Positions 1-54,800 of a stretch of DNA of 64,000 nt are shown in pieces. Source of the stretch: Hydractinia symbiolongicarpus. Its lineage: Eukaryota > Cnidaria > Hydrozoa > Anthoathecata > Hydractiniidae. Numbering within the stretch: position 1 is the stretch's first letter; every line of letters begins with the position of its first letter. A program made the translations under genes and the position numbers. The stretch is from NCBI RefSeq assembly GCF_029227915.1, contig NC_079887.1, forward strand, positions 14,942,001 to 15,006,000. The letters are read 5' to 3'. The notes beneath the pieces were generated by a model, which saw nothing but the letters and a program-made list of their open reading frames with translations, was not told the DNA's origin and did no database searches.

Positions 1-3000
1 CAGATCTTGATCAAAGATAGAAAGTAAATAACATCTTGAAGTTAGAAAGAAGATATCAACCGAAAGATTATTGAAAGAGTGCCCGAAGCCGCCCTCTCGG
101 GTACTAAGACAGATCTTGATCAAAGATAGAAAGTGAATAACATCTTGGAGTTAGAAAGAAGATATCAACCGGAACAGTAATGAAAGAGTGCCCGAGGCCG
201 CCCTCTCGGGTGCTAAGACAGATCTTGATCAAAAGATAGAAAGTGAAATAACATCTTGAAGTTAGAAAGAAGATATCAACCGAAAGATTATTGAAAGAGT
301 GCCCGAAGCCGCCCTCTCGGGTACTAAGACAGATCTTGATAAAAGATAGAAAGTGAATAACATCTTGGAGTTAGAAAGAAGATATCAACCGAAACATTAT
401 TGAAAGAGTGCCCGAAGCCGCCCTCTCGGGTACTAAGACAGATCTTGATCAAAAGATAGAAAGTGAAATGGCATCTTGAAGTTAGAGAGAAGATATCAAC
501 CGGAACATTAATGAAAGAGTGCCCGAGGCCGCCCTTTCGGGTGCTAAGACAGATCTTGATCAAAAGATAGAAAGTGAAATAACATCTTGAAGTTAGAAAG
601 AAGATATCAACCGAAGATTATTGAAAGAGTGCCCGAAGCCGCCCTCTCGGGTACTAAGACAGATCTTAATCAAAGATAGAAAGTGAAATAACATCTTGAA
701 GTTAGAAAGAAGATATCAACCGAAAGATTATGGAAAGAGTGCCCGAAGCCGCCCTCTCGGGTACTAAGACAGATCTTGATCAAAGATATAAAGTGAATAA
801 CATCTTGAAGTTAGAAAGAAGATATCAACCGAAGATTATTGAAAGAGTGCCCGAAGCCGCCCTCTCGGGTACTAAGACAGATCTTGATCAAAGATAGAAA
901 GTAAATAACATCTTGAAGTTAGAAAGAAGATATCAACCGAAAGATTATTGAAAGAGTGCCCGAAGCCGCCCTCTCGGGTACCAAGACAGATCTTGATCAA
1001 AGATAGAAAGTGAATAACATCTTGGAGTTAGAAAGAAGATATCAACCGGAACAGTAATGAAAGGGCACCCAAAGCCGCCCTCTCGGGTGCTAAGACAGAT
1101 CTTGATCAAAAGATAGAAAGTGAAATAACATCTAGAAGTTACAAAGAAGATATCAACCGAAAGATTATTGAAAGAGTGCCCGAGGCCGCCCTCTCGGGTG
1201 CTAAGACAGATCTTGATCAAAGAATAGAAAGTGAAATAACATCTTGAAGTTAGAAAGAAGATATCAACCGAAAGATTATTGAAAGAGTGCCCGAAGCCGC
1301 CCTCTCGGGTACTAAGACAGATCTTGATCAAAGATATAAAGTGAATAACATCTTGAAGTTAGAAAGAAGATATCAACCGAAAGATTATTGAAAGAGTGCC
1401 CGAAGCCGCCCTCTCGGGTACTAAGACAGATCTTGATCAAAGATATAAAGTGAATAACATCTTGAAGTTAGAAAGAAGATATCAACCGAAAGATTATTGA
1501 AAGAGTGCCCGAAGCCGCCCTCTTGGGTGCTAAGACAGATCTTGATCAAAGATAGAAAGTGAATAACATCTTGGAGTTAGAAAGAAGATATCAACCGGAA
1601 CAGTAATGAAAGGGCACCCGAAGCCGCCCTCTCGGGTGCTAAGACAGATCTTGATCAAAAGATAGAAAGTGAAGTAACATCTAGAAGTTAGAAAGAAGAT
1701 ATCAACCGAAAGATTATTGAAAGAGTGCCCGAGGCCGCCCTCTCGGGTGCTAAGACAGATCTTGATCAAAAGATAGAAAGTGAAATAACATCTTGAAGTT
1801 AGAAAGAAGATATCAACCGAAACATTATTAAAGTAGCGCCCCAGGCCGCCCTCTCGGGTTGCTAAGACAGATATTGATCAACAGATAGAAAGTGAAATAA
1901 CATCTTGAAGTTAGAAAGAAGAAATCAACCGAAAGATTATTGAAAGAGTGCCTGAGGCCGCCCTCTCGGGTGCTAAGACAGATCTTGATCAAAAGATAGA
2001 AAGTGAAATAACATCTAGAAGTTAGAAAGAAGATATCAACCGAAAGATTATTGAAAGAGTGCCCGAGGCCGCCCTCTCGGGTGCTAAGACAGATCTTGAT
2101 CAAAGAATAGAAAGTGAAATAACATCTTGAAGTTAGAAAGAAGATATCAACCGAAAGATTATTGAAAGAGTGCCCGAAGCCGCCCTCTCGGGTACTAAGA
2201 CAGATCTTGATCAAAGATATAAAGTGAATAACATCTTGAAGTTAGAAAGAAGATAACAACCGAAAGATTATTGAAAGAGTGCCCGAAGCCGCCCGCTCGG
2301 GTACTAAGACAGATCTTGATCAAAGATAGAAAGTGAATAACATCTTGAAGTTAGAAAGAAGATATCAACCGGAACAGTAATGAAAGGGCACCCGAAGCCG
2401 CCCTCTCGGGTGCTAAGACAGATCTTGATCAAAAGATAGAAAGTGAAATAACATCTAGAAGTTAGAAAGAAGATATCAACCGAAAGATTATTGAAAGAGT
2501 GCCCGAGGCCGCCCTCTCGGGTGCTAAGACAGATCTTGATCAAAAGATAGAAAGTGAAATAACATCTTGAAGTTAGAAGGAAGATATCAACCGAAAGATT
2601 ATTGAAAGAGTGCCTGAGGCCGCCCTCTCGGGTGCTAAGACAGATCTTGATCAAAGATAAAAAGTGAAATAACATCTTGAAGTTAGAAAGAAGATATCAA
2701 CCAAAACATTATTGAAGCAGCGCTCGAAGCCGCCCTCTGGGGAGCTAAGACAGATCTTGATCAAGGATAGAAAGTGAAATAACATCTTGAAGTTAGAAAG
2801 AAGATATCAACCGAAAGATTATTGAAGTAGCGCCCGAAGCTGCCCTCTTGGGTGCTAAGACAGATCTTGATCAAAAGATAGAAAGTGAAATAACATCTTG
2901 AAGTTAAAAAGAAGGTATCAACCGATCATTATTGAAAGAGTGCCCGAAGCCGCCCTCTCGGGTGCTAAGACAGATCTTGATTAAAAGATAGAAAGTGAAA

Positions 3001-3796: not shown

Positions 3797-3868
3797 ACAC
3801 CAATAGCTTAGTGGAAAAGCAGGACACCTTCAAATGTCTCAACGTAGGTTCGAATCCTACTTGGTTTT
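3797..3868 (+). tRNA. tRNA-like sequence, probably a pseudogene or SINE head
   Basis: The segment folds as a cloverleaf. A 7-bp acceptor (ACACCAA with TTGGTTT) has one C-T mismatch and can be extended outward by three further pairs. The D arm is GCTT/AAGC with loop AGTGGAA. The T arm is perfect, GTAGG-TTCGAAT-CCTAC, and also forms a good B box. The anticodon stem GGACA/TGTCT encloses an 8-base loop (CCTTCAAA), so no anticodon can be assigned with confidence: TTC would lack T33, and TCA would read a stop. The odd loop and the acceptor mismatch argue for a tRNA-derived pseudogene or the head of a short retroelement rather than a working tRNA. No polymerase III T-run follows closely. Confidence 0.5.
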
Positions 3869-6438: not shown

Positions 6439-6900
6439 TATCAGTTAACCTTACAATTTTTTTATATAAAAAAATAATGCTAAGTTGAAAAAAGATAGGG
6501 TAAACTCATTAGTTAACCTTTCATATAAGCAAACAAGTAAAAGAATAAAATTAGAAACTTCATTAGAATTTGTTACAAAGATAAAACACGAACAGAAACA
6601 ATTTGATTGACAGTCACCAAATCATCCTTCAATCAAAATTTTGAAGTTCATGTCTTAATTTTCATTTAAACTTTTTTGTGCTGAATGACAAAAACAATAG
6701 GTGCCGTCCATCACAACTCAAATGGAAAATTATCACCACATGGGAAGCTTTGGGTTCAATCCGTGAAAACGGATCACTGCAAATTAAAAATTACGGAAGT
6801 CAATTTTAAGAAAAACGTCTTATTTCAATTTCTCTTTTCATATAAAACACAATTGAGTTGAAAATTTTAAATGGTGCTAAGCTAACGCACATATCACACA
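6439..6900. other. 5' flank of the ARL6IP4-like gene
   Basis: AT-rich interval upstream of a minus-strand gene. It presumably holds its promoter and 5' UTR. I see no clear TATA or initiator arrangement and no other gene. Confidence 0.4.
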
Positions 6901-6904
6901 AAAA

Positions 6905-7440
6905 TTGTTGTTGTTATTGTTGTCTTTTAATGTTGTTGTTATTTCTGCTTTTGTTGTCTTGTATTGTTATTGTTGCTGTTTATGTTGTTATTGTTTTTGT
7001 CTTGCATTGTTGTTGTTGCTGTTGTTGTTGTCTTTTAATGTTATTGTTGTTATTGTTATTGTTGTCTTTTATTGTTGTTGTTGTTGTTGTTGTTTTGTTG
7101 TCCTTTATTGTTGTTGTTGTTGTTGTCTTTTAATGTTGTTGTTATTTCTGCTTTTGTTGTCTTGTATTGTTATTGTTGCTGTTTATGTTGTTATTGTTTT
7201 TGTCTTGCATTGTTGTTGTTGCTGTTGTTGTTGTCTTTTAATGTTATTGTTGTTATTGTTATTGTTGTCTTTTATTGTTGTTGTTGTTGTTTTGTTGTCC
7301 TTTATTGTTGTTGTTGTTGTTGTTTTGTTGTCTTTTATTGTTGTTGTTGTTATTTTTGTTGTCTTTTATTGTTGTTGTTTATGTTGTTTTTGTTATTGTT
7401 GTCTTCCATTGTTGTTGTTATGTTGTTATTGTTGTCATTC
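6905..7440 (+). repeat. GTT/ATT-rich microsatellite with internal 203-bp duplication
   Basis: Over 500 bp of imperfect GTT and ATT triplets broken by recurring tgtctttt and tgtcttg. A stretch of roughly 150 bp beginning near 6926 recurs 203 bp later near 7129 (compare tatttctgcttttgttg at both places), so the array grew partly by segmental duplication. Because the period is a multiple of three, all plus-strand frames stay open and give spurious Val/Leu/Cys-rich ORFs of up to 194 residues. Confidence 0.9.
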
Positions 7441-7638
7441 TTTTGCCTTAGAGAGCTGCTTCCTATACACCACGATTCGCGGTTGGTGAAAACGTTCAAT
7501 TTAACTTGTGTTAAAAATCTACACTATATATATATGGTTGAATATATTAACATCTAAAATATATTTAATACATAAAACATATATAAATTATATATACACG
7601 AGTATTATTATATGTATTAAAGCAAAGTGGTATCATAA

Positions 7639-7888: not shown

Positions 7889-14592
<6,704 letters not shown>

Positions 14593-15797: not shown

Positions 15798-17040
15798 CAT
15801 CATCATCATCATCATCATTCTCGGCTTAACATCCGTTTTCCATGCTAGCATGGGTTGGACGGGGTACATTAATGACCCTCTTCCAATCTGATCTAGACTG
15901 TGTTAGATCTAAACTCAACTTCCTCTGTAACAAGTCTGTCCTTATAACCTCCTGCCAAGTCTTTCTTGGTCTGCCTCCGGGGTTTGCCACAAGAACTATC
16001 AAGAAGTACACTTTCTTACCCAATTATCCCCCTTCATTCTTTCCAAGTGCCCCAACCAATTCAATCTTCTTATCTGGATAACATCTGTAATTCTACGGAT
16101 ACTTAGCCTGCTTCTTAGCTCATCTGAACTCTTTCTGTCTCTCAGACTGGTGTTAAACATCCGCCTAACCGTTCTCATATCATTCCCTTCTAAACGGTCA
16201 AGATCTCCTGCTTCACTGCCCATGTCTCACTGCCGTACAACATAACACTTCTTACACAGGCCTCATATACAACCTACCTTTTAACTCAATTGACAAGACT
16301 CTGCTAGTCAACAAAGGAAGTAACTCTCTGAACTTTTTCCAAGCAGAGCCTATCCTGCAAGTAACACTTCTTCCAACACCCCCTTCACTGCCCAACATAT
16401 CACCTAAGTAACAGAAGTTCTCAACTATCTCTAAGGAGCCACTGTTGTATATCATTGAAGCTGGAAATACTTCATTCTCTATAATCTCACCTTTGCAACG
16501 CTTGCATACAAACTGAATGTCAGCTCTTAACCTTCCACCAATACTACTGCACTTCTTATGTACCCAATGCTTGCAAATCTGACAAAAACTACCAGCCCCT
16601 TTTCTGCAAACTCCACAAGGCCACTTTCCAGCTACAAGGTCACACTTGGCTCCAATGCTACTAATCATGACTTCAGACTTTGCTGTGTTCACCCTTTTCC
16701 TTCTAGTCCTTTCTTCCACTTCTCAACCTTTCAACTTATTCTTCCATCCACTTTGCTATGAGAACCAAATTATCTGCATACAATAACTCCCATGGACAAC
16801 CTGTTCTGAACACCATTGGCAGCGCTTTTAAGACTAGAACAAACAGCAAAGGACTAAGTACAGAACCCTGATGTACACCAAAATTTACACTAAATTCATC
16901 ACTAAGTGAATCGTTAATCCTGACACGACTTCTAGCATTGCTGTACATAGACTGTACCATTGTAACTAGCCACTCATCCACATGAAACCAAATTGTCAGC
17001 AGCTCTTTAGATACAGTAACACTATATACGGTTTGTATTT
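15798..17040 (-). mobile_element. 5'-truncated, frameshifted non-LTR retrotransposon (LINE)
   Basis: On the minus strand, three successive frames carry the 3' half of a LINE ORF. The reverse-transcriptase region has GVHQGSVLSPLLF and a degenerate catalytic box YADN in place of YADD. A Cys/His PHD-like zinc finger follows (CGVCRKG, CQICKHWVHKKC, VCKRC). The usual tail has DRKSSDELRSRLSIRR, RRLNWLGHLERM and GRPRKTW. Frames break near 16720-16740, 16230-16250 and 16000-16020, so it cannot be functional. The 3' end is a GATGATGAT tail (complement of atcatcatc at 15798-15820) preceded by a CCATGCTAGCATGG palindrome. The 5' end is missing mid-RT. The clade was not assigned. Confidence 0.88.
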
Positions 17041-17478
17041 TGTTGCTCACTTCAGGTTTTCTTGTATTGTATTATAAATTATTAAAAGTATTTTCTGGAA
17101 TGGTTCCGTATATGCAGAAGTTTGTTTAAGACCAAAAAGAAGGAAGCTTACTTTAAGGTAATTTTGCTGCCGGGATTAATTTTACAGATGATCACCAGAT
17201 TAATCTGAAATTAATTATATACAGAATAAAAAGAAAGAATTATATATATATAAATTTTTCAAATTTGGTTTCTTAAAGTAACTCTGAGGTCCATCACACA
17301 AAAGCTCAAAGTTGTTACTTAGGGCAGTGTCCATAAGTTGCCACAGGGAACTTCAATTTGACGTTTCTTTCTTAAACCCACCAACACATGGCAGAAACCT
17401 TAATGCGTATCATATGCAAAACAAAGTTTTAAGATTCTGGAAGTACAGGCACTTTTACAATAGCTTCTGTGTAATAGT
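17041..17478. other. intergenic, no feature seen
   Basis: AT-rich spacer between the LINE fragment and the SINE. No ORF or repeat terminus of note. Confidence 0.4.
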
Positions 17479-17834: not shown

Positions 17835-17982
17835 GTTTCTTTAAATTATTTGGTACCAAGACTGCTTTTTTCCAGCTATTTCTTGGTTCATCAGGGATAT
17901 ATCAATTGGAAAAAAACACTGTGTGTTGTTATTACTGTATCATAATTTGCACTTATATATCTTATTCTAGTGAATGTAAATT

Positions 17983-20900
17983 ATGCTGAAAAAATCAGGG
18001 AAAGTTTTCCCAAATCCTGTTAATCATCAAAACGAAGGTATTAAGAATAGATATTATACTCATATTGATGACATTGCAATGTCTGAATACAAAGAAGATA
18101 AACGCAAGAAATCTAAAAGTTTAGAAGAGTGGAATTCAATTTTCTCTCAAATAAAAACTGTGTCCAAATGGCGAAATTTCATAACAAAAAGAAGGTGCCA
18201 AACTATAAAGTTGAATGCTCAAAAAATGAATAACCAACAGTTTTACGAGAATTTAAATTCAACATTAAATGGAATAGCTTCGGAAGAGGAGGACTCTGAT
18301 GAAGATGAGGACGTTAGCCATATTAGAAGGCAAACTTTTGAACACAGAAATTTGTCAAAGTCGAGCAATAAAGCATTATTGATATATTTTTCCAAATTGG
18401 CTCGTAGTAAGAACGAATCAGATGAGTTAGATTTAGATTTTATAGAAAGTTTATTAACCAATGGAGCTGATATAAACATGGCAGACAAGTATGGCCAAAC
18501 TATTTTCCATGAAGTAGCTCGAACATGGCACATTGATGTTGGTACCTTTTTGTTAGCACATAATGGTAATATTAATCAAACAGACAAATATGGAAGGACT
18601 CCATTGCACATTGCTGCAGCAGTCAATTACCCTCAAATGGTTAAATTCTTAATAGATAATGGAGGTATACCATTTTAAAATGCTTCTAATGTAACTGTGT
18701 AAAGTAAAAAATAAATTTCTAGTAATATCATTTAGATTTAAGATAGCTGGCTTTAAACAACCTTTAAAAGGTGTTTAGGCAACTTTGTTTTACTAGAGAC
18801 TATTTGATAATGCTATATAACCAATATAGTTGTTTGATGTAGCAAAGTTTATGTGATTATCATGTTTGGTATTATCTTGTTATTTTTAAGCTAATGAAAA
18901 GGCAAGAACATATGGAGAAGACCAAACACCTGTCCATTATGCTGCAAAAAATGATGCAGTAGATTCACTGCGCATGTTATGGAAACTCAATTGTGACATG
19001 GAAGTACGTGATAGTAAAAGTCGAACTCCATTGCAGGTTGCAGCTGAGTTAGGTTGACAATTAGCTTTAATATATTTTTTATTCCTACCGGACGTTTAGT
19101 TGTGTTGTTGTTGTTGTTGTTGGTACATTCTGTTTTTTATTTATGCTGTTGTTATTGTTAGTTATTGTTATTGTTTTTGTGGTTTTACTTTTCTCGTTAT
19201 TGTGAGGCCACAGTTACTTAATAGTTTTCTTCAAAAACGTAAGAATAGTTTAGTTTTTATTACTTATTATTCTGAAAGTTACAATATGGTTGTCTTTGAC
19301 ATTACTTTCCTTCTGCGGTTGTGATTTTAAGCTAGTTCTATCTTCGCTTGAGCAAGTTTTTTTTTCAGGAAATGGAAAAAGAAATATTTAGATTTGAAAC
19401 TTTTTAAAATTTACCATTTGCAGCATAATCAAGTCAATGATGGTTTTTAGTAACACTCATCTATTTTGTGTAGATCGTTCAGAAACTGCTTTGTTCCTGG
19501 TGGAGATCAATGTTGATGTGGGTGTTGTTGACAGCAGTGGCTTATCTGCCCTTACTTTAATGGTGGATAAAATGCCACCAGTTGCAAAGAAAGCACTTAG
19601 TTGCTTTCACAAAACTGACAGACCCAACAGAAAGCAGTACTTCTACTTAAATTTGTTAGAACCAACACAACCTGGAAATAGTTCTGTTCTTGCCAAGACA
19701 CCAATGCAGGTTTATTTTATTGATTTATTGATTTGTGTCACTCTAAGTATAGATATCAAGGCTTGTTTTTTTAATTTTTTGGAGGGAATTTTAATACTGA
19801 TTTTTTTGAAATTGTAGTTATAAACACTGTACTTAAAGGTTCTATTAAATTTATGATTTTGCGGAACATATTTGACGGTAGCTTCTTTTTGAAACTATAC
19901 CCACATGTTAATGATATCTGTGCCTGATGAGGGTTAGTGAGAAAGGCAGTAAAAATTCAAAACTTTGTATCAGACATTCTCTATATTGATTTTGTTTATT
20001 ATGAATTTGCATACTTAGTAATCTACCACTTGTGATTCCTACACTCTTGCTGATACTCTTCTCGTTGTTGTTACAGGCTGTTCTGCAAAATAAACAAATG
20101 AATTTGCTGTTACATCCAGTGTTTCGACAGCTGTTAACAGTCAAGTGGAATAGTTTTGCACGTATGCGTCACTTTGCACAGTTATTGATCCAACTTTTAT
20201 TTATCTTAATTTGGTCAGCGGTTGGTTTGACGTTACCTTATGATGGTACATCAGAGTATACGAAGGGAGATTTAAAAGACAAATGGTGGAGAGTGTTGCT
20301 GGAGTCGTCGGCTGTGTTGCTGACTTTGTATTTTATTGCACAGGTAAATGGTTTTAAGGTGTATACTTACAATTGTAGAATAAAAAGCCAATAGACTTGA
20401 ATGTCTATATGTCCCGGGGTTTCATGTAGCAGCTCCTAAATCTATTTTAATTCGTCATATATAAACAAAAGTGCTTTCCTGTAATATAATTTCAAAATAG
20501 AAATTTTTTTTATGTGATTCCAATATCTTAGATACAGAAGAAAGAATAAAGTTTGAAAACAGTTGTTTAAAATGGTAAAAATGTATAGAATACATTCCTT
20601 TCAAGTTTTGAAGGAGTGCTAGTTTAAAATATAATGGATGCATTATTTCAAGTTTTGAAGGAACGCGCTTCACAAAAGAAAAATTAAACGACAAACTTTT
20701 GACAAACTTAAATATTTCATATAAAAAAATGCAATGCACCATCGGTGCTTATTTAATTCACAACAAAAAAATCGCAAGTAAAAAATACTTGGGGTTTAAA
20801 AACAATAATAAATAGTAATTGGAACGATCAAAATTTCTGTGGTTCCAGGTTTTTACCAAAGTATTTCATTTTTTCTTCAAAACTAAAATAAACATCCTGG

Positions 20901-23524
20901 AAAGTTTTGACTTTTTACACGGGTCCTTTATAGGGGGTTTCGTATTTCGGTTTCTTTTGATGCCAGAGTTAAATCGAGAGAATAAAGGATTGATGATTTA
21001 TGGGAGAGGTTATGCTAAAACAAAACGGAAAAAAATGACGTTTTCGATGAAAAATTAACTACATATCTGACATTCACCTATTATAGGTGAATGTCAGATA
21101 AAAACTAGATAACCATTTAAACCATAATAGACAGTTGGGCATATCTGGGTCCGGGGTCCTTCTTTTTCGGTATGCTGCTTCCGTATATTATATCAATAGG
21201 GATGAATATAAAAGTGGATTTTGGTGGGATTTTTATAAACATTTCAAAACTTGACATTTTATAGACGGCTTAGATTTTTAAAGTAAGGTCTTTGACTTTA
21301 AATCTTTGTTAAAAACTCTTATCGATATTATTGCAGGAGATTTACGAATGGAGGTGTTCTGTGCGACAGCATCACAGGTGGGGAGAGTGGAGAAGTGCTG
21401 AAATGCAGAAGGACCTTAAATACTGCCATCCGAGGTGGCCTGAAGAAAAAAAATACATTCTTCAAGAACTTGATCGTATCAAGGAATCGGAAGTCAGATA
21501 TTTCGCCGACATGTGGAACATGTTAGATTGGGTCACTTACATTTGGATCGTCACTGGTATTGTCGCACGCATTTTTGCGTTGACGGGTGACGCCAGAGCG
21601 AGTGGACACCACAAGAAGATACTAGCGACTTCATTGATCGTCATTTGGTTACGTCTTATGAAGATAATTCGCGCCTACCAAGCGTTGGGTGAGTTTTGTT
21701 TTTGTTGATTTAAGCTTAAAAATTAAATAGGTGTCTTTGGTTATGTCGCGAACAGCAAGATCCAACTCCGCAATAATATCAAAATGCAAATGGAACAACA
21801 CTTCAAGCATTTTACTTACACATGTCGTAAGGAACTGTGCGTTGGGTTTTTTTTTAATCCAGTTAGCTTGAAGTCGCACGGTGAAAAGAGGTCGTGGGCT
21901 TAAATTCATGAAAAACTTGTAAAAATTTTGATAAATTGAGTCTCAGGCAAATTTTCCAAAAAAGATATATAATTGGAGGAGAGTAAATATTGTAGTAAAT
22001 ATTGGAAAACATGACATCACGATAATTCCAGGTTTTATACTGCACCATCCAATTTAGATGTATAGAATATAGGAATAATTAACCTTTCGTTCATTCCAAC
22101 AAAATAGCCTTTTTTCACACGGCAACCTGCGCGAAAATTGCCGCGCGAAGTCAAAGTAAATTTTGCTACATACTGTTTCATCCTCGGTTGGAATCGGGCG
22201 CCATTAGAATGAAGAGTTATCTCGTGAGGTTCACAGTGTTTTTCTGAAATAAGTTCTGAACGAAATGTTGGGAATTAAGAATGGTGAGAGAATTAAGAAC
22301 AATTTTTTAAATATATTGTCCGAGATTGTAATTTTAATCCTTTGTTCATTCAGGTCCCTTTATTGTCATGCTGGGGAATATCTTGGAAGACACGTTGAAG
22401 TTTTGTTTTTTATTTATGGAGTTCTTCATACCATACCTCATGGCGTTTTGGATGTTGTTTGGTGGAAAAGACCACGCATCAAAAATGGTAGCTCGTGGTC
22501 AGTCGTCCTCTGGTTGGAAGGAAGTCAATGACTTGATATATTCCGTCTGGTTAGTAACCGTGGTTGGAGACTACGACTATCCAGCCTTAATAACGATAGA
22601 TAAAGTCATGGCTCAAGTCCTCATCGGATCTTACACAGCTTTGTCTGGCATCTTACTTTTAAATTTATTTATCGCCTTGATGTCTGATACGTTTCAGCGA
22701 GTGTACGACAACGCTAAAGCCAACGCACTTATGCAAAGAGCTATAGCCATCGATACCTATCAAATCGGGCTCTCGAGGAAAACCAGAGACCGGTTCCGTA
22801 TGTTTATACAAGGCCAGTGCGCTCCACAGGTGGGCCTATTTTTAAATATACAAATCAAGCTTTTGTTTTAAATTGATCCAAGTTCTAGATCTTTTACACC
22901 AGTATTGCACTGTGATTATTGAATTTGCAGCGAGAAAAATTTTTAAAGGGGAGTCGTTATACTACTGTTTAAGGTGATTCGTAAGTCCAAACCTTGACTT
23001 ACCTGATTTTTTGTCACAAAATATATATTTTGTCACGAAAAGTATATTTTATTTTATTTTATTTTTAGCAAGTATATTACGATGATGACGATAATGACGA
23101 AAGTGGCGAGCTTGAAAAAATGACCATACAAATTAAAGAAGTTGTGGACGAAATAAAAGAAAATTTGGACGAACGGTGGAGTGCCATGGAGGGTAACAAT
23201 AATGGCGGCAATAACCACAATAACACGGGAAGTAGTGTTTCTTTAGGCGACGAATTCAACGAGCGATTGAAGGGAGCGTTGAGTAAACACGAGAAGGATA
23301 TGAAGTCGATGCATAAAAAAATAGACGAGTTAACTAATTTAGTTCAGTATTTGGTAAATAAAGACAAAATTGCAGACCAAGATGAAGTAGATGGTGCTAA
23401 TAAATTCACTACTTTACCATCCATATTCGACTTAAAGCCCGAAATGTTTACACGGTCTGTAGATTATCGTATTTCCCCGTCGACACGCCAAAACGACGAC
23501 ACTGACGACACTGATGTTTCGTAA
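17983..23524 (+). CDS. ankyrin-repeat TRP cation channel, TRPA-like
   Basis: Seven exons (17983-18664, 18891-19052, 19474-19709, 20077-20343, 21337-21688, 22354-22829, 23069-23524) give 876 residues. A stop lies in frame just before ATG 17983, and a splice acceptor (ttctag) sits 12 nt upstream, suggesting a 5' UTR intron or spliced leader. Order: basic/acidic N-terminus, about 5 ankyrin repeats (residues 130-300, e.g. DKYGRTPLHIAAA), then the TRP linker with KMPPVAKKAL and RPNRKQYFYLNLLEP. Membrane segments are near residues 396-414, 434-448, 511-531 and 544-562, S5 near 583-601, pore loop near 625-645 with VVGDYDY, and S6 near 655-675 (LLNLFIALMSDTF). The C-terminal tail is a charged coiled coil. 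The linker resembles TRPA-family channels such as pyrexia; ankyrin repeats are far fewer than in TRPA1. A plasma-membrane sensory cation channel is inferred; the stimulus is unknown. Confidence 0.88.
21065..21099. repeat. 35-bp palindrome, 16-bp perfect stem
   Basis: A perfect inverted repeat (arm ATCTGACATTCACCTA, 3-base loop) inside intron 4 of the channel gene. It could extrude as a hairpin in DNA or in the pre-mRNA. No transposon termini are evident around it. Confidence 0.85.
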
Positions 23525-25900: not shown

Positions 25901-28900
25901 TCAGCGAGCGAAATACTTGATGTTTCTATCCAAACTCGCGCTGGCAATAAATGAAGCGCTCTTTCCGAACTTCACTGACGTCACGAGTCCAGTATGATCT
26001 AAGTGAAAGAATGAAAGCTACATAGAGGCGGGATTTTACGTGGAGAATTTTGAATGACAAATTTGATAGCAACGAAAACAAAAACAACTGCACATGTATT
26101 CACATTCTAATAAAAACCACAAACACACTAAATTAATAATGAAAAAATTACCGGCAAATAATGATTCTTCTGATCAATTGCGGACAGAATTTTCAGAATT
26201 GCGGACAGAATTTTCAGAATTGCGGACAGAACTTTCAGAATTGCGGACAGAACTTTCAGAATTGCGGACAGAACTTTCAGAATTGCGGACAGAACTTTCA
26301 GAATTGCGGACAGAATTTTCAGAATTGCGGACAGAACTTTCAGAATTGCGGACAGAATTTTCAGAATTGCGGACAGAACTTTCAGAATTGCGGACAGAAA
26401 AAGAACGGACAAAATTCTATTGGCATTTTTTATGTGTTGGTTGCTTGGGAGGTTTTGAAATACCTTTTTTCAAGAAATACCCTTTTTTAAAAATACCCTT
26501 TTTAGCAGTTTAACCTGAATTGCAAGAATAAACTTTTTAAAAGTCACAAAAAATCTTTTATACAAGCTCCGCTCGTAAGATTTTTTACACGTGCGCGACT
26601 TAAAGATGCTATTTTTTCTACCTGTGAGTTTCTTCAGCAGTTCCCATTGCTTCACCACGTACAATCTGAAGTAAAAAAATTAAAAGAAAAACAGTAGCCT
26701 AATTATCTAAATCAAAACCAGACGTCTGTTTGAACCTGGTACAGTATTAACGAAATCAAATAAGACAATTACTGAATATTAGAACGTGCTAGTAACGTGA
26801 TCAAATAAGACAATGAATATTTGAGTCTGCTACAGTAGTAACAAAGTCAAATAAAGCACTTACTGAATATTTGAACCTGCTACTGCTAGATAGTTTCCAC
26901 TTTTGTCAAAACATAAAGACTTGATCTATAAAAAGAAAATAGGGATCACGCAATTTTTTTTGAGATACACAAACCTATTTCGTATTTCTTACTGCATGAA
27001 ACGTTTTTCGACATCATATTTTAAAAACTAAAAAACTTATTTTAGTCTATATTTTAAGAAAAACATAAAACGCGAAACGATAACTACGCAAAAACTTTAG
27101 GTACGGAATCACTATTACAACCACAAATTTATACAACTACAAATTTTACTATATACTAAATGCCTTCCTATATTTATATATGCAATTTATATTAGATATA
27201 TTTATTAAATAACAATTATTTATAATAAAAAGATCTTGTCTCCAATGAATACCTTGGATGTACATCACTTAAAAATCCTTTTGCTGATAGTTTCTAACAA
27301 AAACTATCAGTTAACAGTAAGTTTAGATAACTTGAGGCTCTTCTTCTGACCCAATGTTTTTGGTTTTGGCTAATGGTGACTTAATAAGAATTTGATTAAA
27401 TTTCGCTGGGGTTGTTTGGAAACCTTTCAAGAATCGACTCGCAAAAATACATTTCTTAAAACGACATTCGCTAATTTTTTTTTTAAATTTAACGAGCCAA
27501 GTAAAATACACACAAAAAAAACAAAGATAAAAAAAATTATTTGCTTCACTTTTGGTTAATTAATTAATTATTCAAATTAATTTGTTGCAACTGAAAATTC
27601 TCATATTAACTCTCAATACATAATTATTAAATCCGAAATGAAGTAAAGTCCGATTTGACAGTTTTTAAAATAAAAGTATTCCCATCCTTAGTGCTTACCT
27701 CATCACTTTCATCCAAGGTAATCGTTTTGAAGTTCTTTAGTTTTCTTAAATCCCAAAGTTTGACAACGGAATCATCAGCACTTGTCGCTAAGTAGTATCT
27801 ACAAAAGAAAACGAAAGTTACAACAGACTTCTGAACACATGAAGCATACCGTTCATGCGACACTCTTACACAAAACAAAATTTTTGAGCAGTATGAAAAA
27901 GTGATGGGCGGATAATAGAAACAGTCAACGGCACCTTTAAAAAAACAAAGGACTCATACATACCCGTTTTCAGAGAAGGCGATTGACGTAATAGGTCCAG
28001 AATGTCCAGGGAAGTTTGCCACGTTTTCTCGTTCTTTCAAATCCCAAATTTTCACAACGCTAAACAAAGTAACAAAGTTAAAAATACTTTTTTTAAATTT
28101 TCGAACATATCAGCAACTTGCTTGTTCTCTTGTAACAAATTGCACAATTTTTCCTAATAGAAATAAAAAAATCTTTAAAAAAAACATCAGAAAATATAAC
28201 ACTAAAATAATACGAGCAACACGTTGCTTTTTGCATACTAAATAACCTGACGTCACTGAGTGCACATCCATAAAACTAGTTTAAGTATAAAATTATGAAG
28301 TCAGAAATTTTCTTTTATGTAAGCTACTAAAACTTGTTACGAAAAGTATTTGTAAATCAATCTGAAACATAACAAAAATTGTCTAAAAAAAAATCGTGTT
28401 TCGTTGCACCAACCTGTCAGTTGTTCCGGTTCCAAAGATCAAACCGTCAGGATGTAGCTGAGCACAAGTTAAACCTATAATACAAACACTTTTTTTATTG
28501 CTTCATATAATTTCTTCACTTCTTCAGCCTGCTTCATACTTATGCACGCACACGCTTAAATAACGTCGTTTGTAAAACCGAAAAAACGTTGGACAGGCAT
28601 TGCTCCTTAAAAGGTCTCGGATATCTTAAATATGTTTTTATTCCAGAGGATCATTACATATTTACATAAGAGGATGCATATTTTTGAAATCCAACTTGGG
28701 TTTACTAGCAAATGATTTAACATTGGTAGTTACAAGACTTTGACATGAAAAACTAATAAAAGGTTTGCTCTTACCATGGCTAGCATTTGGATCCGAGATG
28801 TTCTTGCAGAGGATTTTACCAGTTTGAATATCAGAGAAGGCCCAGTACTGTAAAAACAACAACAAAGGAAACTAAGTTAAATACTGTGTTTATCTAACAA

Positions 28901-45800: not shown

Positions 45801-48800
45801 CTTATTACATTATAGAGGCAAACATTTACATTGATGTGAAATTAACATTTTATTTGTTTTTAGAATTGTTTTATTGCTATCTTTTTTTGCGTATAGGTTG
45901 CAACAGTGTTGTATGATCTTGCGTGGAAATTAACAAAAGATAGTAATGACCTGCTATGGTATTCTTTTTGTCTTTACGAAATTATCAACAATGTTTGTAT
46001 CAATATGTGTCCATACTTTGGTTGGTTTTTCCTCAAAAAATTATTTTTTAATTCATCAGAATTTAGAATGTCTGCCAGGCCTTGAAAGCGTTAAAATCAG
46101 AGTGGCCCTGAAAATCCATTGATTTCCTAAAAAAAGTTAGAATATAATACTTACCCAATCTTCTATCCAGTTATGTTAATTATCTTGCAGTAATCGATTG
46201 TATTTTTTTAAATACTTTAATTCTAGTAATTTTCGATGCTGTTATTGGGTCTTTTTACATTCACTTTAATAGTGGGCACATATTTTCTTTTTGTCTAATA
46301 ACAGAATTAAAATATGGCAAAAAAATATTGCAAAAACCTTGAAAAAATATTCAAGAAAAATAGGGGAAAGAACATTAAAAAGTATTGAAAAGGTATTCAG
46401 CAAACACCCAGCATTTCCTTATGCTTAACATTAAGCAAAAAAAACAATCGCTGTTTATGGTGCCTCATTTTTGTGTGAAATTCTCTGTGTAAGTACCTTA
46501 AAACCCTTTTAATTCTTACATTCTTATTTAGCTAAATTCAATTAAATATTTCCCCATAAAATTTAGGTTTTCTTTTGCATTAATATATCTCATTTTCTTG
46601 TTTCCTCAAAAACTTTGTTTTATTCATTGTGATTGAGTTCAAAAACAAAACTGCTGTTGTAGCAAGTTTAACAGTGGTTAATCACTTTAAAGGGATCCCG
46701 AGGTGTCTACACAAGTAATGCTTATGCAACTCAAAACATTCAAAGAAATATAGTAGAGAAAGTCTTTTTAGCCAAATCAATATTATGTAGAAGATATATC
46801 CATGTTTACCTCGTAAAAACAGCAGCGCTCGCCTCCATTTTGTTGTGATTATATTTCGGTAAAATTCAACTCTAGCGTCCAGTCTTTTTTCCATGGGTCA
46901 AAGTTGTGACGCGCCAGTTCAGTATCAAAAGCGCGCGAAATACATAATACACAAGAAAATCGTTTCGTTAATGCAGCAAAATGTCTGTAAATCCTTACCA
47001 GTTTGAACCACAAAAAAAGGTTGTTAACAATTCCAACAATGATAGCAATGATAGTTGGGAAGATGTTCCCGACTGTCCAGAAGAAGTTAGAGAGCAAGAG
47101 CCTCGTATCAATCGCCTAGACGTCGAACCATCCTCATGGTGTAAATGTTCGTTTTGCTGTACGATGCCTGTGAGTCGTGAATGTTTATGCTGCACAGAAA
47201 TCGACGAAATAAAGTTGAGATATATTTCTGGTGGTATGATTCTGTATAATTGATTAGTGTGCATATTTTGTTGAATGAATAACTAAGAAATTTTTATATG
47301 CTCGATCCCAGGACCTGTATGAGACAGGCCTCTAGATCTAGTTTGTAAATTTTCCCAATTTGTTTTTTTTCTAGATTATACATGCGTAACTCAGCATGAA
47401 AGTTTCGATGCTGTGTGTTTAAATCCACATGTTTTATGGACCGCTATGGTTAGTTTGAATGACAGGGAAGGTGCATGGCTACCTTGCATAGACAATATAC
47501 CGAATCGGTAAAAATATATATTATTCTCAAACATAGATCTCATACAAAATGTTTCTCAACACGCTCAACAAAATACAAAACAACAAAATAACTCTATTTA
47601 TATCTCAAAAAACTATACTCAACTTATGTACATGCAAAAATATACATTTAATGAACCTCATCCCCAGGCCTTTTTCTCGTTTTAGGACTTATCGCTACGC
47701 AGCGTATCGACAGTTTTCTTGGTTTGTTTATACAAAACTTGGAAGACATGTTCGTAGAATCATTCCCGCTTGTGTGGTTTCAAAAATTAGAAAAAAATTT
47801 CCAGAAGAAAATGGAATTTATGTGAATTTCGATGGCGACGATGAGGGAGCAGACGGGATGTCTGAAATTATCCAGGCGTGGGAGTACATGACGAGCGAAG
47901 AACAGAACAGATAGAGCCCTTAACACAAACGCCTATTCGACTGAATTTGTGAACTTAGAACCCAGGACGTTTTTCAAATTTGATAGAATTAAATCGCTTC
48001 CCCCAAAACCTTTTCTAAATTACATGTATATATCATGTTTTAAATCTCGCCATTTTCGTTTTCTTCTCAATTATTTCATCTCGGCTTGCTCTTTCTTTTG
48101 GTGCCATGATTCGCTTTCTCGACCTGTGTTTTTCACGTTTCGCCGCTCGTTTGTATGCACCTATCATCATGACCTTCAAGTATTCATAATTTTTTTTCTC
48201 AAATACTGTTCTAGCGATTAACTTCTTCGTTGGTTTGCGCCAAGCAATTTTGAAGCGTGGTTTCCCAAGCTGTTCACCAGATTGAATAATTGCTTGAGTT
48301 CGCTGGCAGTTGAAGTTATTATCCAAAGCAGCCAGATAAGCACCCATGACCATATGATCGTGCTGAAAATGGTACTGCTTAGGAATATACTTCAACAAAA
48401 GGTTGTTAAAAACTTCCACATTCGTTGTGTGCACGACATCCGTTAAATACTTCAAGTCATTTTTGAAGGACTTGTCTCTGACCATTGAAACTAAATATTG
48501 ATGAGCTGGTGAACCCTCTAACAACCAGTTCTTACTTTTTTGTTCTTCTTTCGTAAGTGGTTCATGTTCACACCTTTTAAATTTTTTACATCCCGGCCAT
48601 TCATGTTTGTTGATAGTGTGATAGATGATTGACTGAAATTTTTCATAGATAAGGTCAGCATCGCCATTGGCAGTTGTAACGCTCCACCAGAAGTGGTTCA
48701 CTATTGAAGGTACCCACTCTAACAAACTTTCATGACTTTTCTTTTTTGCAATTTTATTGATTTTTTTATTTATATTTTTGGCAACGTGCCATGGATCAAA

Positions 48801-51800
48801 TTGATGTTTGATTGTGTTGAACTCAGGGTTCACTCGCATTAGTTTGCGTATTTGTGTGTGTTTATCTGTGGCCACAACATCCACGTGAACATCATTATTT
48901 TGCAGCTGTCGTAAAATACGAACAAACCCTTCTTTTTCCATGGCGTTTGAATTCTTTACTTCTGTTACAGGTACCACAACAGTGTCAATAACTTTCCCGG
49001 TAAGTGTTTCCATGAACGTATAATTGCAGTACTTTGCAGAATGGCCAGGGCTATCGCATCTTCCGTCACCAACGAGAACAACGACATCACGCGATTTCAA
49101 CAATTCCACCATACGTTTACGTTCGACATTCCACTTTTGTCTAACTACGGGAAAGATGAAATCACGTCGAATCTGATAATACACACTGTCAGATATGAAT
49201 TTCAAATTAATCAACCATGCAAACCTCGAAATTTTTGCAAACGGTACCCCTGAAAAAGCGATTGATGTTGAAATAAATAAATTTCCCAATCCGTTTAGTG
49301 AGCCGACCATTGGTTGACTTTTCCATTCGATATTGCATTCATTGAAGCAATTAATTTTTAAATGCAATTGGGAACCGGTATTCATAACTTCTCTGATTTC
49401 AGATTGATCAACAGGCCCACCACACCTTGGACACCGACCGAGCAATTCAAATAACTTACTCTCGTAAACTAGAAATACACGTTCATTTCTAATTTTCTCC
49501 TTCCAACTGACACACTCATTCTGCGAAAGATCAGATTCTGTTGCATTCTCATTCTGTGAAGGAACATAATCACTATCAGCAGCGTCTTCACCACAATCGT
49601 CACTCGAACTTTCTGATTTATCATCCAATTCCAATTCATTATTTACAACCTCCAATTCATTATTTACAACCTCCAATTCATTATTTACACCATCCAATTT
49701 ATTATTTACACCATCCAATTTATTATTTACAATTTCAACAGCAGCACTAATGACATCCTCCGCTTCATCTAAACCACTACTCTGAACACCCAAATTGTTA
49801 CAAAAATTGTCAGCCACCACAGTCTCTAACACGTCAGTCGACACACTCTCACGATTCTGACAAACAATTTTTACGCCATCACTTTCTAAAATACCTTTCT
49901 TGGGTATTGGAAATTGTACACCTTTCGATGGATTGTTCTTTTTGAACGTTTTTGTTTGGCACCTAACACTTCTGAAGTGTCTCATCCTCGTGAGGGTAGA
50001 CGCATCTCGATAATACGTCGGTTCTGTTTGCACACTGACTGTGTTGTAAGTGATGTCTGTTTGAGTTGACATATTTCTAGAACCTTGAACATCAGAATCA
50101 GCAGGCGAGAGGCTTCCAAGACTGTCAAAATCATCAACTGGAATTGTATAAGAGTCTTCTCTATAATAATAGCCGTCGTCTGTCTGTCTCTGCGCAACAT
50201 GGCAGAGCAAGTAGCGAGACCCGCCGAAAATCCCTGCGGCCCTGCAGCTTTATTTCGAATCCCCGGCAGACCCCGTTTTTTTACCGGCCTTGCTTTGCCG
50301 CTCATTGTAATAAACCAATCACGAGGCTCCATTTTCACTAATGACCAATCCAAGTGCTTCGCGGCCTCAACATGCCGACGGGAGGAAACATGCTACCCCT
50401 ACGAAGGCCATTTTGGTTTGGAAGTGATGGTGTGAAGTTTGTAGGTTTCCTTTCAATCCTCCTTATTTCTTCTGAGTACTTTTTATCCTATAGGATTATT
50501 TAGTTTGTTTTCACATGTTAGGTGAATATTTCATCACGTTTTCTAGCTACGTATAAATCTTAAACAAACCAATTTTAAGTTTTTGGCTAGCTACAAAACG
50601 TACATTTTGAGGCAGCTAGCTATAGCTATCTTATAGCTATCTATTTATTCCTATTCTTTTAAAGTTTTTATTCAGTTTGGTATATTGTTCTTTATTTTTA
50701 TGTAGAAGTTGGGTCTACCTATCTAGCTCCTTTTAGCTCTACCTCTGGCTAAAAAGTGAAAGTAGCTAAATGCAGTTATAGGCAGCTACCAATTTTATTA
50801 CTGTTATGAAAGCTTATGCTGAAAAATAAAATTGCTGAGTATATATTTTTTTCACTGAACTTGATAACGACAGGCGGTTTCCTGATTTTTTTTAAACTGA
50901 AGTCGCGATAAAGTTTTTTTAAAAATGGTGTTATGCCTATACTCATGTGCGACAGAGTCTAGATGTACTAACGCTTAGTCCGGTGGTAACAACGGGCTGT
51001 TTCCTGTGTTTCTGTTTAACCGAAGTTGTGATAACGTTTTTTACAGAAAAAAAGTACACACTGTTTACCTATACTAAGCGCTCAGCTTAACATTTTTTTG
51101 AACTTTTCCCGGGAACATTCCCTGAAAAATAAAGAAGGTTGGCCAGCTGCTTTCGCTATGACGGGGTAACATTGAATTGTAATCTGGGTTTTTATTTTAC
51201 CTAAGTTGTCGAAAGTTATTTTTTGAATAGTATATTACACCGGAAACACCATAAAGTTGTGTGCACTTCACTTGATTTTCTACACACTATATGGCTGTAC
51301 TAAAGCGCTTTACCTGAATGTGTGGCACAGTTGACGGTTCTTATTAATCACTCAATTTGGTGTTTAACGCTGGGTAACACAGCTACTTGTGGCTTAACCC
51401 GCCGTTTCAACAGAGTGTATCCTGTGTTTTGTAAACCAAAGCTTCAATAGTTTTTTTGAATAGGGTCTTAAGCCTAAACGCATGTTTCGCACGATTTATC
51501 TGTACTAAGTGCTCAGTCCAGTGTCACAATTAATTTGTTAACCTTTACTGAAACTTATTTCGCAAAATAAAATAAAATTGACCAATTGTTTTTCCTATGA
51601 CGGGGTAACAAATGGTTGTAAATTGTGTTTTTATTTTGGCTAAAGTTACAGTAGAGTTATATTTTCAAAAATACACTACAGCCGAAACACTATAGTGTTG
51701 TGTGCGCTTTACTCGATTAAGGACATACTGCGTACCTGTACTAAAGCGCTCCACCTGACCGTGTAGTACAGATTACGGCTCTTATTAAGCGCTCCACATA

Positions 51801-54800
51801 GTGTTCAATGGCGGGTCACACCTTGACTTGTGGCTTACCCCGGCGTTTCGACGCCGGGTTTCCCGGCTAGTGTTTTTCTAATAAGTCTGAGACAATCTGA
51901 AATTAAAAGAAAATCAAATGATAAGGCCTGGGTACTAAGGTATATTATATTATATATGTCACACCTTTTTATAACACAAAATGTATATGATTGGAAGGAA
52001 GATAAATAAATTTACGTATCTATATTTATCATTTTTCTCAAGAAGTTTCATATTTGATATCTCGTAATTATAAGCTGAAGACTGGTCACCAAGTTGTTAT
52101 TGCAAATCACAATACCTCAGCTTGTTCTTTGACTTTCAATCTTTTTGTGGATGATGCTCTCTCAGGTGTTGGCTCAATATGAGGGAATAAGGTGGGTATT
52201 GCCCCTGGCACCAGCTTCCGAATCATTTTTTTATTTTTATTTGCTGCATACTTTTGTTGCATATCAAAAGATTTGTCGAAACAGTCTTCGGTGAAATGGG
52301 TTGAACACAAGTACCGATATTTTGGCAGTGAGGTCCGTTTGACTTTGGCAATCCATGTTTTATTTAATTCTGGATCCTTTGGAAATTTATGATACGATAC
52401 ATTATCATTTAAATTAGATTGATTGTGACATTTATAAGCACAACAGTGCGGCATGTTTACACGTCCTCACAGCATGCGCACCACGTGAAAAAGACCGCGA
52501 AACAAATCTGAGATGAGCATATTTTTCAGAATGAGTTTCGTGGTCGTACACATGATCATAAAAGACATTTTATACAGAGAATGTTGCATCAACTTAGGAA
52601 GACGAATGCAGTGAAGCCAGAGGGATTGTTTATAGGCTAACAGCAATTTTTTCACGCTACGCAACTGTGACGTCATAATAACTAATTTGTGGTTTTGAGT
52701 AATGAAAATAAGTTCTTCACTATTTCGAAAAGAAGTTGGACAAGAAGCAATGGCGGACAGAGCGGGAAGGAAGTAAGCGAGCGAAGCACAAACTTTTGAT
52801 TAACGTTATTTGTTGAATCGATGAGTTTGAACAAAATAAATAACAAAGGTATGAATAAAATCATGTACATTTTCATATAAACCAAACTTGTGTAGACACC
52901 TCGGGATCCCTTTAACTTATTCACACTTTAGTGTTTGCTGAGTAGTCTTAATTCGAGAAATAATCTTGTTTAACACAGGAGTGGTAGCAATTGTTACACA
53001 GTATACTTTAATGCCTAGAATGTTGTTTTTAAAATAAAAGCCTTTAATATATTGTTTTACAATTTTTTTTAAATGTCTGCTACTTATTATTTAAATTTTC
53101 GTGTGTGCTCTGTTCCAATCAATCATCAGAGATGAGCTTGTCAAAGTCTAATCCTTCTAAAAATTACAGACTGCCTTTTTAAAGGAACAAGAAAACCCCG
53201 GTGATTTTAATCATCATTAAATAAAAATCTTTTGAATATTTTCATTCCAATATAAAAAAGATAAGTAGCTGTGAAAAAAGAACAACCATTACTTAAATCT
53301 ACATAAAAATTTTTATTAAAAGAGCCTGTTCTAAAAATGTTCAAATTGATAAATTGCAAAAAGAAATAATTTTTTTTATTATTATTTATTTTTATTTTAT
53401 TTTTTGGCCTAATAAAATTATTTTTTAGAAAAAATGTTTTGATAATTCCAAAAATATTTAAATACCCTTCTCATTTATTCTGTTTGGATATATTTAAGTG
53501 TTAATAAGTAAACTTGCAAGTATATGTGGCAGATCATAAGCACTATCTCATGTTATATTTTTGAGTACACATGCATTGATATGTGTCCATTGAACAAGCG
53601 TTAACTTAGTAATTATATGTACAATTTATTGTTTGTATTATAACAATGCGACTTATGTTTCTTTAGCTATAAACACACCATTTTTGTTTCACTTTAAGTC
53701 TAAAATCAAAAGGCTTTCAATTATTGACAACACTTATGCAGATCCTTTATTTAACCCATCTTTTCAGTAGAAAGCTTGGTGCCTTAAGCATTTATATGTC
53801 ACCTATATATCACCTCATTTAGCACCAAAAATATTTTATTTTGTGTCATTTTTCTCAGTTGATTTTTCTCGAAAAATTATTTTTTTGGTCATTCGAAATT
53901 AGAACACTAAATTTCCCAAGATTTAATACATAAATCTCCTCTATATATATATAATATATGATTTTTTTGTTTACAATGACAGGCTTTCCATTGTTGGGTT
54001 AACAGAACAGTATTTGATGTCAAAGATTGACAGGTTTGTCTGCCTAACTTCATATAACAGTTTTCTTAGTAATCATCAGATCATTGGTGAAGCACTCTGT
54101 ACAACCGTCACTATTTTACAAATAACATTACTGATCTTTCTTTTTTAGAGAAAGATACTTTGAGGAATACACAAGTCTGCGTGATCACGTACTTCGACAT
54201 AATATTACAGATGAGGAACATGCACAATCAATTGACTGTGTAAAAATATCGTTCGAAAATGAGTATCCCTTTCTACATGTTTTGTTTAAGCAGCTTTTCA
54301 CATCTTGCTTTACATGCTTATTAGTTCTTGTTTCATCTTCTCATATTAACAAATTTTATTCTTAACACTTTAACAGGCTACGTTTAGATTTATATCGTCA
54401 CTGGTCTTTGTTTCAAAGTTTTATGAATTCACAGTACACATCTTGTGGGTATGTATTAAAGTGCTTTAACTTTCGTACTGCTAAAAAGTATTTCTCGTAT
54501 AATTCTAGAAGCTTAATTTGTTTCCCAAACTACTTTTTGTGTGAATTTTTGTGTATCAAGTGTCTCTGTTTTAAAGTCTCTTTTTCTGTTAGATTTCGAC
54601 TATTTACAATGAAAGGAAAAAAACGCCTGCATGAATTGTTTGCTGATATGGGGTGAGTTATAACCAGTTTACTAAATACACATACATACTACCATCATGG
54701 ACGAAATTAATGAAACAAAGAAACAGTTTTTTCCTCAGTTTTAAACACCGACAAAAGGATGAAATGCTCACTACTCCGCTTTCATCAGGCTAAAAGTCAA

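What the first reader, a model, noticed from the sequence alone, without database searches (positions are those of the whole stretch)
46981..47914. A P2X7 ballast-domain gene inside a Kolobok-type DNA transposon
A three-exon gene encoding a soluble protein that matches the P2X7 cytoplasmic domain in order (WCKC..C, C-rich [23 protein letters not shown]) lies between identical 26-bp TIRs and TTAA duplications, facing a THAP transposase gene. In vertebrates this domain is fused to an ATP-gated channel and is thought to have been captured from a separate gene. Its presence as a transposon passenger gives a direct route for dispersal and capture, and suggests an unknown function in transposition or in host-element interaction. 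The family matches are established knowledge; the link between the two is inference.
Basis: partly seen in the sequence, partly recalled or inferred. Interest (0 to 1): 0.92.

Follow-up and report, generated by a model that had tools for sequence, protein, structure and literature searches.

The report
KolX gene in a Kolobok transposon
This is an apparently intact animal jumping gene that carries, beside its transposase, the stand-alone gene (KolX) from which the tail of the vertebrate P2X7 receptor is thought to descend; the link was published in 2022, so it is a good example of a known kind rather than a discovery.

Summary
A 6,221-bp element (46691-52911) is bounded by identical 26-bp inverted repeats and TTAA duplications. 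It encodes a three-exon, 204-aa protein matching Pfam P2RX7_C (E=1.3e-14) and, tail to tail, a THAP + DDE transposase predicted in two exons. It sits in CDC45, apparently in an intron (downstream exon by eye). The transposase is 97% identical to a Hydractinia symbiolongicarpus protein, so the host is probably a nearby hydrozoan.

The proposed link is in print: Kojima & Bao 2022 (PMC9587614; named sections and passages read) report that Kol0 Kolobok elements encode KolX, that KolX has the P2X7 ballast fold, and that P2X7 and nanor derive from it. This is a new member of a known kind.

Added here: seven of seven zinc cysteines kept, two of five GDP contacts; a [YF]x[FY][ED]P motif near the N-terminus in 33 of the 38 sequences examined for it. 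Co-location in other genomes could not be tested; the listed KolX and transposase proteins of named species lie on different contigs where lengths are given. KolX's function is unknown; I favour a transposition accessory.

The parts
46687..46690 (.). TTAA target-site duplication, left
46691..46716 (+). left 26-bp terminal inverted repeat (AGGGATCCCGAGGTGTCTACACAAGT; starts RR)
46691..52911 (.). whole Kolobok element, 6,221 bp
46981..47233 (+). KolX exon 1 (N-terminal PYQFEP motif, acidic stretch, WCKCxxC, CLCC)
47375..47507 (+). KolX exon 2 (CVTQHE ... NIPN)
47686..47914 (+). KolX exon 3 ([17 protein letters not shown], acidic tail), with stop codon
48033..50189 (-). transposase exon 2 with stop codon: DDE catalytic part; acceptor before 50189 or 50183 (predicted)
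50190..52115 (-). predicted transposase intron (1,926 bp if the acceptor is at 50189), holding diverged direct repeats
52116..52454 (-). transposase exon 1: THAP domain, 113 aa; joined to exon 2 by prediction only
52886..52911 (-). right 26-bp terminal inverted repeat
52912..52915 (.). TTAA target-site duplication, right

Best explanation
This is a recent, apparently complete, autonomous Kolobok DNA transposon of the kind called Kol0, inserted at a TTAA inside CDC45, apparently in an intron, in a hydrozoan close to Hydractinia. Shown: two identical TIRs with TTAA duplications, an intact-looking KolX gene, and open THAP and DDE exons that can be joined in frame. Inferred from the families: the THAP domain binds DNA, presumably the element's ends, and the DDE domain cuts it out and pastes it into TTAA. 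KolX is most likely a standing component of the element that assists its own transposase: a zinc-knotted scaffold whose conserved arginines (P2X7 R546 and R578 equivalents) may hold a phosphate, nucleotide or nucleic acid, and whose N-terminal YxFEP motif docks on a partner. That functional step is a guess (about 0.45). P2X7's tail descends from such a gene (published proposal).
For: Element borders and TTAA; RR..YY ends (AG...CT). THAP; 12 of 73 transposase hits carry a THAP domain in the same protein by their precomputed Pfam field. DDE-type signatures GDGRCD at 487, ATDKH at 553, DPWH at 578, C647/C653/H655, TTNVE after 700 (assigned by eye). KolX: P2RX7_C, P2X7 PDB chains, the seven zinc cysteines in 15 of 15 sequences aligned. 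Kol0 described as transposase + KolX, KolX = ballast. Recent: TIRs identical; transposase differs from H. symbiolongicarpus P0017 by 5 mismatches plus 14 gap columns over 693 aligned columns. Both genes hit in four named species: Hydractinia symbiolongicarpus, Oculina patagonica, Mugilogobius chulae, Salarias fasciatus. One contig length (22,810) is shared by a transposase (P0021) and a weak KolX fragment (P0134), the only match between 61 and 70 lengths. Conservation of motif and cysteines between distant animals argues for a function.
Against: No other copy of the element could be read: the genome search did not complete (11 calls). In three of the four species with both genes the listed KolX and transposase proteins lie on contigs of different length, so those pairs are not one element (Salarias has no lengths). 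Six named species had a KolX hit only and nine a transposase hit only, in these limited searches. The window KolX is only about 71-72% identical to the two H. symbiolongicarpus KolX proteins found, although the transposases are 97%, so they come from other families or copies. P0017 as annotated lacks the THAP exon. My loose patterns for the catalytic motifs match 64, 37, 38 and 22 of 73 transposase hits. Kol0 lineage was not tested by a transposase tree. No data on what KolX does or on expression.
Confidence: 0.85

Rival explanations
1. KolX does not help transposition but acts on the host: it damps silencing or DNA-damage signalling, or represses its own element, and is kept because it helps the element persist.
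For: A conserved short linear motif plus a zinc scaffold looks like an adaptor; other Kolobok lineages carry quite different second proteins (nuclease, helicase, exonuclease), so the second gene varies freely.
Against: Those other second proteins are nucleases or helicases plausibly acting on DNA intermediates, which points to transposition. No direct evidence either way.
Confidence: 0.3
2. The ballast gene is a host gene picked up by this transposon as a passenger.
For: Stand-alone ballast genes are widespread in animals and Rump 2020 saw shared neighbours across invertebrates.
Against: Kol0 is described as encoding two proteins, with KolX as the second, and as present in vertebrates, annelids, cnidarians and sponges; that paper concludes the reverse direction.
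Confidence: 0.08
3. Coincidence: an unrelated host ballast gene lies by chance between a transposon's ends.
For: Only one copy could be read.
Against: The gene lies wholly inside one pair of exact TIRs with TTAA, within CDC45, and the same gene pair is published for this lineage.
Confidence: 0.02

Closest known systems
Kolobok superfamily, Kol0 lineage (Kolobok-1_XT type), as described in Kojima & Bao 2022, PMC9587614; the original 2007 report was not seen
   Same: TTAA duplication, RR..YY ends, DDE transposase with DxxH, second protein KolX with the ballast fold; cnidarians are in the published host range.
   Different: Nothing found that sets it apart; whether this exact family is already in Repbase could not be checked.
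Vertebrate P2X7 cytoplasmic ballast (PDB 6u9v, 9e3m and others)
   Same: Seven zinc cysteines, W476, R546, Y550 and R578.
   Different: No P2X channel part; H547, C573, R574 and K583 are changed in the window protein. The YxFEP motif lies outside the stretch aligned to P2X7; whether P2X7 has it further upstream was not tested.
Stand-alone ZCD / nanor-like genes (PTHR36981; Rump 2020 PMC7016195)
   Same: Short protein with the same cysteines and with R546 and R578 only of the GDP site.
   Different: That paper treats them as host genes; here the gene lies inside a transposon.
KolobokP
   Same: Same superfamily: TTAA, DDE transposase plus a second gene.
   Different: No long terminal direct repeats here; second gene is KolX, not a His-Me nuclease.

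Membership tests
Kolobok superfamily | TTAA target-site duplication | tested here: met
   TTAA on both sides
Kolobok superfamily | termini 5'-RR ... YY-3' (separates it from piggyBac) | tested here: met
   element starts AG and ends CT; criterion from PMC9587614
Kolobok superfamily | DDE transposase with C/DxxH between second D and E | tested here: met
   GDGRCD, ATDKH, DPWH at 578, TTNVE, (assigned by eye)
Kolobok superfamily | zinc finger between C/DxxH and E (almost all lineages) | tested here: inconclusive
   C647, C653 and H655 with H637/H642 lie there; not aligned to the published finger
Kol0 lineage | second protein KolX with P2X7 ballast homology | tested here: met
Kol0 lineage | transposase groups with Kolobok-1_XT in a tree | not tested
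   Repbase sequences not at hand
KolX / P2RX7_C (PF20478) | score above curated cut-off | tested here: met
   55 bits against 23.5
KolX / P2RX7_C (PF20478) | seven zinc-binding cysteines | tested here: met
   7 of 7; which seven I took from the motifs given
KolX / P2RX7_C (PF20478) | ballast fold in three dimensions | not testable with these tools
P2X7 receptor | P2X channel domain fused upstream | tested here: not met
   the protein has only 52 residues before the first zinc-cluster tryptophan and no P2X domain match in Pfam up to E=1
P2X7-type GDP site | R546, H547, R574, R578, K583 (list) | tested here: not met
   2 of 5 kept (R546, R578)
KolobokP | long terminal direct repeats | tested here: not met
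   between the first and last 900 bp only the TIR and one 17-bp direct match at E=0.28

The most novel reading that the evidence does not exclude
KolX is a two-part adaptor: an N-terminal [YF]x[FY][ED]P docking motif, which my searches did not find described, joined by an acidic linker to a zinc ballast, with which the element recruits either its transposase or a host factor; P2X7 took over the ballast but not the motif, turning a transposition part into a receptor tail.
Probability: 0.3. Interest if true: 0.6.

Novelty: new member of a known kind. Interest (0 to 1): 0.35.

Why it matters
The origin of the P2X7 ballast has been traced, in one section of a paper on another topic, to a transposon protein of unknown role. 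A recent, apparently intact Kol0 element at or near Hydractinia, a laboratory cnidarian (recalled), offers a concrete system in which the original job of that domain could be tested.

Tried and rejected
Own-genome search for PF20478 (to count copies and co-location) was asked 11 times and never answered. Viral-contig scans with KolX, with P0017 and with the exact TIR found no relative. A tree of 18 rows with two P2X7 chains left P2X7 on a long branch (6.74); 4 of 15 inner branches were well supported, 8 open, and treekit warned of long-branch joins, so it says nothing about the source clade. The KolX N-terminus against the PDB gave only chance-level matches, E 0.27 and up, none of them P2X7. 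The direct-repeat test for KolobokP was negative. Considered and dropped: piggyBac (same TTAA, but RR..YY ends and a transposase matching PF20700); the idea that P2X7's GDP site is retained (not so).

Literature searches: P2X7 + ballast domain + cnidaria (3 papers), Kolobok + P2X7, KolX, the string PYQFEP, nanor/zebrafish/P2X7 (950 holding at least two of the terms, 20 listed), P2X7 + ballast + transposon, Hydractinia + genome + Kolobok (PMC13327316, listing only). Of PMC10620158 I saw passages only; they repeat the Rump 2020 account. Supplementary Figure S6 of Kojima & Bao, which concerns the KolX-P2X7 similarity, was not seen and may show the motif.

Full report
What is there. The window holds one exact 30-bp inverted repeat around the finding, 46687-46716 and 52886-52915: TTAA followed by a 26-bp terminal repeat. 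The 26-mer occurs nowhere else in the window with up to three mismatches, and in none of 100 shuffles. The element is 6,221 bp. Its first and last bases, AG and CT, fit the RR..YY rule given for Kolobok.

The KolX gene. Exons 46981-47233, 47375-47507 and 47686-47914 have canonical borders and give 204 residues. Pfam P2RX7_C scores 55 bits against a cut-off of 23.5 (that scan used a version lacking one residue at the first junction). P2X7 chains of the PDB match at best at 1.7e-6, or at 7.4e-14 with a profile of 16 relatives. Some relatives look as if they keep the intron positions: P0013 and P0014 run off into other sequence just after the first junction, and P0005 carries an insert at the second (by eye). 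These are reading frames from contigs, not transcripts. There is no expression evidence.

The transposase gene. On the minus strand a THAP exon (52116-52454; PF05485 E=3.3e-19) can be joined in frame across a 1.9-kb intron to a catalytic exon ending at 48033; the acceptor is before 50189 or 50183, giving 831 or 829 residues. The best database match, P0017, starts at residue 153 of this joined protein, so it does not support the THAP exon; 12 of the 73 hits do have THAP in one protein with the transposase (precomputed Pfam field). The catalytic signatures GDGRCD, ATDKH, DPWH, a C/H cluster and TTNVE are present; loose patterns for four of them match 64, 37, 38 and 22 of the 73 hits, some of which are fragments or more distant. 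Between the first two there is C491, H496, C501, H548, not obviously the CCHC finger of KolobokP and its kin, but this was not aligned. The search with the catalytic ORF returned 73 proteins at E<=1e-10, with only the 7,999 candidates sharing most words scored. P0017 of Hydractinia symbiolongicarpus differs by 5 mismatches plus 14 gap columns over 693 aligned columns. An in-frame 21-bp repeat has five units here and seven in P0017.

Setting. Exon pieces before the element, joined by eye, match CDC45 at 8.5e-43. A piece after the element resembles the next CDC45 exon by eye, but the 36 residues I tried gave no Pfam match. So the insertion lies in a CDC45 intron, as far as can be told. GC is 33.6%. 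The species is inferred, not given: a hydrozoan at or near Hydractinia.

Relatives of KolX. One search gave 16 proteins, a profile search 55, of which 46 were new: 62 in all. Named sources are a hydrozoan, two corals, a sea anemone, two sea cucumbers, two fish, a sponge and an aphid. Named species with both a KolX and a transposase hit: four (Hydractinia symbiolongicarpus, Oculina patagonica, Mugilogobius chulae, Salarias fasciatus). Six had KolX only (Porites lobata, Holothuria leucospilota, Exaiptasia diaphana, Sycon ciliatum, Uroleucon formosanum, Apostichopus japonicus) and nine the transposase only (Merluccius polli, Neogobius melanostomus, Diadema antillarum, Lytechinus variegatus, Haemaphysalis longicornis, Dermacentor silvarum, D. 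andersoni, D. albipictus, Montipora capricornis). The searches are limited and absence means little. Where lengths are given (three of the four species) the listed KolX and transposase proteins are on contigs of different length, so those listed proteins are not partners in one element. Adjacent location was not shown in any other genome. One contig length (22,810) occurs in both lists, for P0021 and the weak fragment P0134, which suggests but does not prove one shared contig. The two H. symbiolongicarpus KolX proteins are only 72% and 71% identical to the window's, so they are not copies of the family whose transposase is 97% identical.

Residues. I aligned the window protein and 14 of the 62 relatives, chosen for length, with the ballast of PDB 6u9v (rat, as I recall; numbering from the chain). 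W476 and cysteines 477, 479, 482, 498, 499, 506 and 572 are kept in 15 of 15. R546, Y550 and R578 are also kept in 15 of 15, H547 in 2 of 15, and C573, R574 and K583 in 0 of 15. This agrees with Rump 2020, who found only R546 and R578 outside deuterostomes. The zinc cysteines are thus old, and the full GDP site of rat P2X7 is not seen here.

A motif. Of 62 relatives, 37 show at least 25 residues before the first cysteine cluster by my pattern; 25 were left out. With the window protein that makes 38, of which 33 carry [YF]x[FY][ED]P there, mostly PYQFEP or PYSFEP. I chose the pattern after seeing the sequences, and many are related, so the 33 are not independent. Composition shuffles (1,000) gave a mean of 0.1 and a maximum of 2, and 0 of 73 transposase hits carry it. 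Of the five without it, P0010 has the near form PYQLEP, P0103 is fused to a helicase piece at that end, and P0098, P0109 and P0124 lack it. Rump 2020 describes the N-terminal parts as without obvious homologs. The string PYQFEP is in no held paper; Kojima & Bao's supplement was not seen. I could not read P2X7 upstream of the aligned stretch, so 'P2X7 lacks the motif' is not tested.

What is known. Kojima & Bao 2022 (PMC9587614; abstract and sections 3, 10, 11, 12 read, passages of others including 9, 15 and 16) say that Kol0 elements encode KolX, that KolX matches human P2X7 476-595, that P2X7 arose by fusion of a P2X4-like gene with KolX, and that nanor is likely a domesticated KolX. They also mention a few piggyBac families with a related protein. 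Rump 2020 (PMC7016195; abstract and sections 9, 11, 13 read) had described the ballast as an ancient separate module, and Kojima & Bao remark that its being part of a transposon had not been pointed out before.

Mechanism. Shown: structure and sequence of the element and its two genes. From family knowledge: THAP-guided DDE transposition into TTAA. Inferred: KolX as an accessory of transposition (0.45), against a host-directed role (0.3). The case for an accessory is that other Kolobok lineages carry nucleases or a helicase as second protein and that KolX is conserved; nothing here tests it.

Verdict. New member of a known kind; interest 0.35, mostly because KolX's function is unknown and this copy seems intact and recent, in or near a laboratory animal (recalled).

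Noticed in passing
window 46993-47010 (KolX residues 5-10), and 33 of 38 sequences examined: Conserved N-terminal [YF]x[FY][ED]P motif of KolX, not found in print by the searches made.
   Followed up: partly
window 49630-49732, minus-strand transposase: In-frame 21-bp tandem repeat (7-residue units), five units here and seven in the near-identical Hydractinia protein P0017.
   Followed up: partly
window 50850-51900: Within the transposase intron, a diverged direct repeat about 440 bp apart (75% identity over 261 columns).
   Followed up: no
window 50525-50590 and 50739-50776, against 14159-14224 and 14362-14399: Two short pieces of the transposase intron match another place in the window (77% and 92%), perhaps a dispersed repeat.
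   Followed up: no
P0103 (Uroleucon formosanum, aphid): One predicted protein joins a Pif1 helicase 2B domain to a ballast domain: another possible fusion, perhaps from a mobile element, or a gene-model error.
   Followed up: no
window 17980-18678 and 22338-22871, plus strand: Frames with ankyrin repeats and an ion-transport domain, perhaps exons of a TRP-like channel gene.
   Followed up: no
window 16252-17071, minus strand: Pieces of a retroelement: PHD-finger-like and reverse transcriptase matches, both under the Pfam cut-off.
   Followed up: no
window 945-2696, 6881-7557 and 26070-26513: Repetitive stretches that keep long frames open, by eye from the ORF list; probably without coding meaning.
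   Followed up: no
window 3797-3868: A tRNA match (Rfam 52.6 bits); ARAGORN could not name it. Perhaps a tRNA-derived repeat.
   Followed up: no
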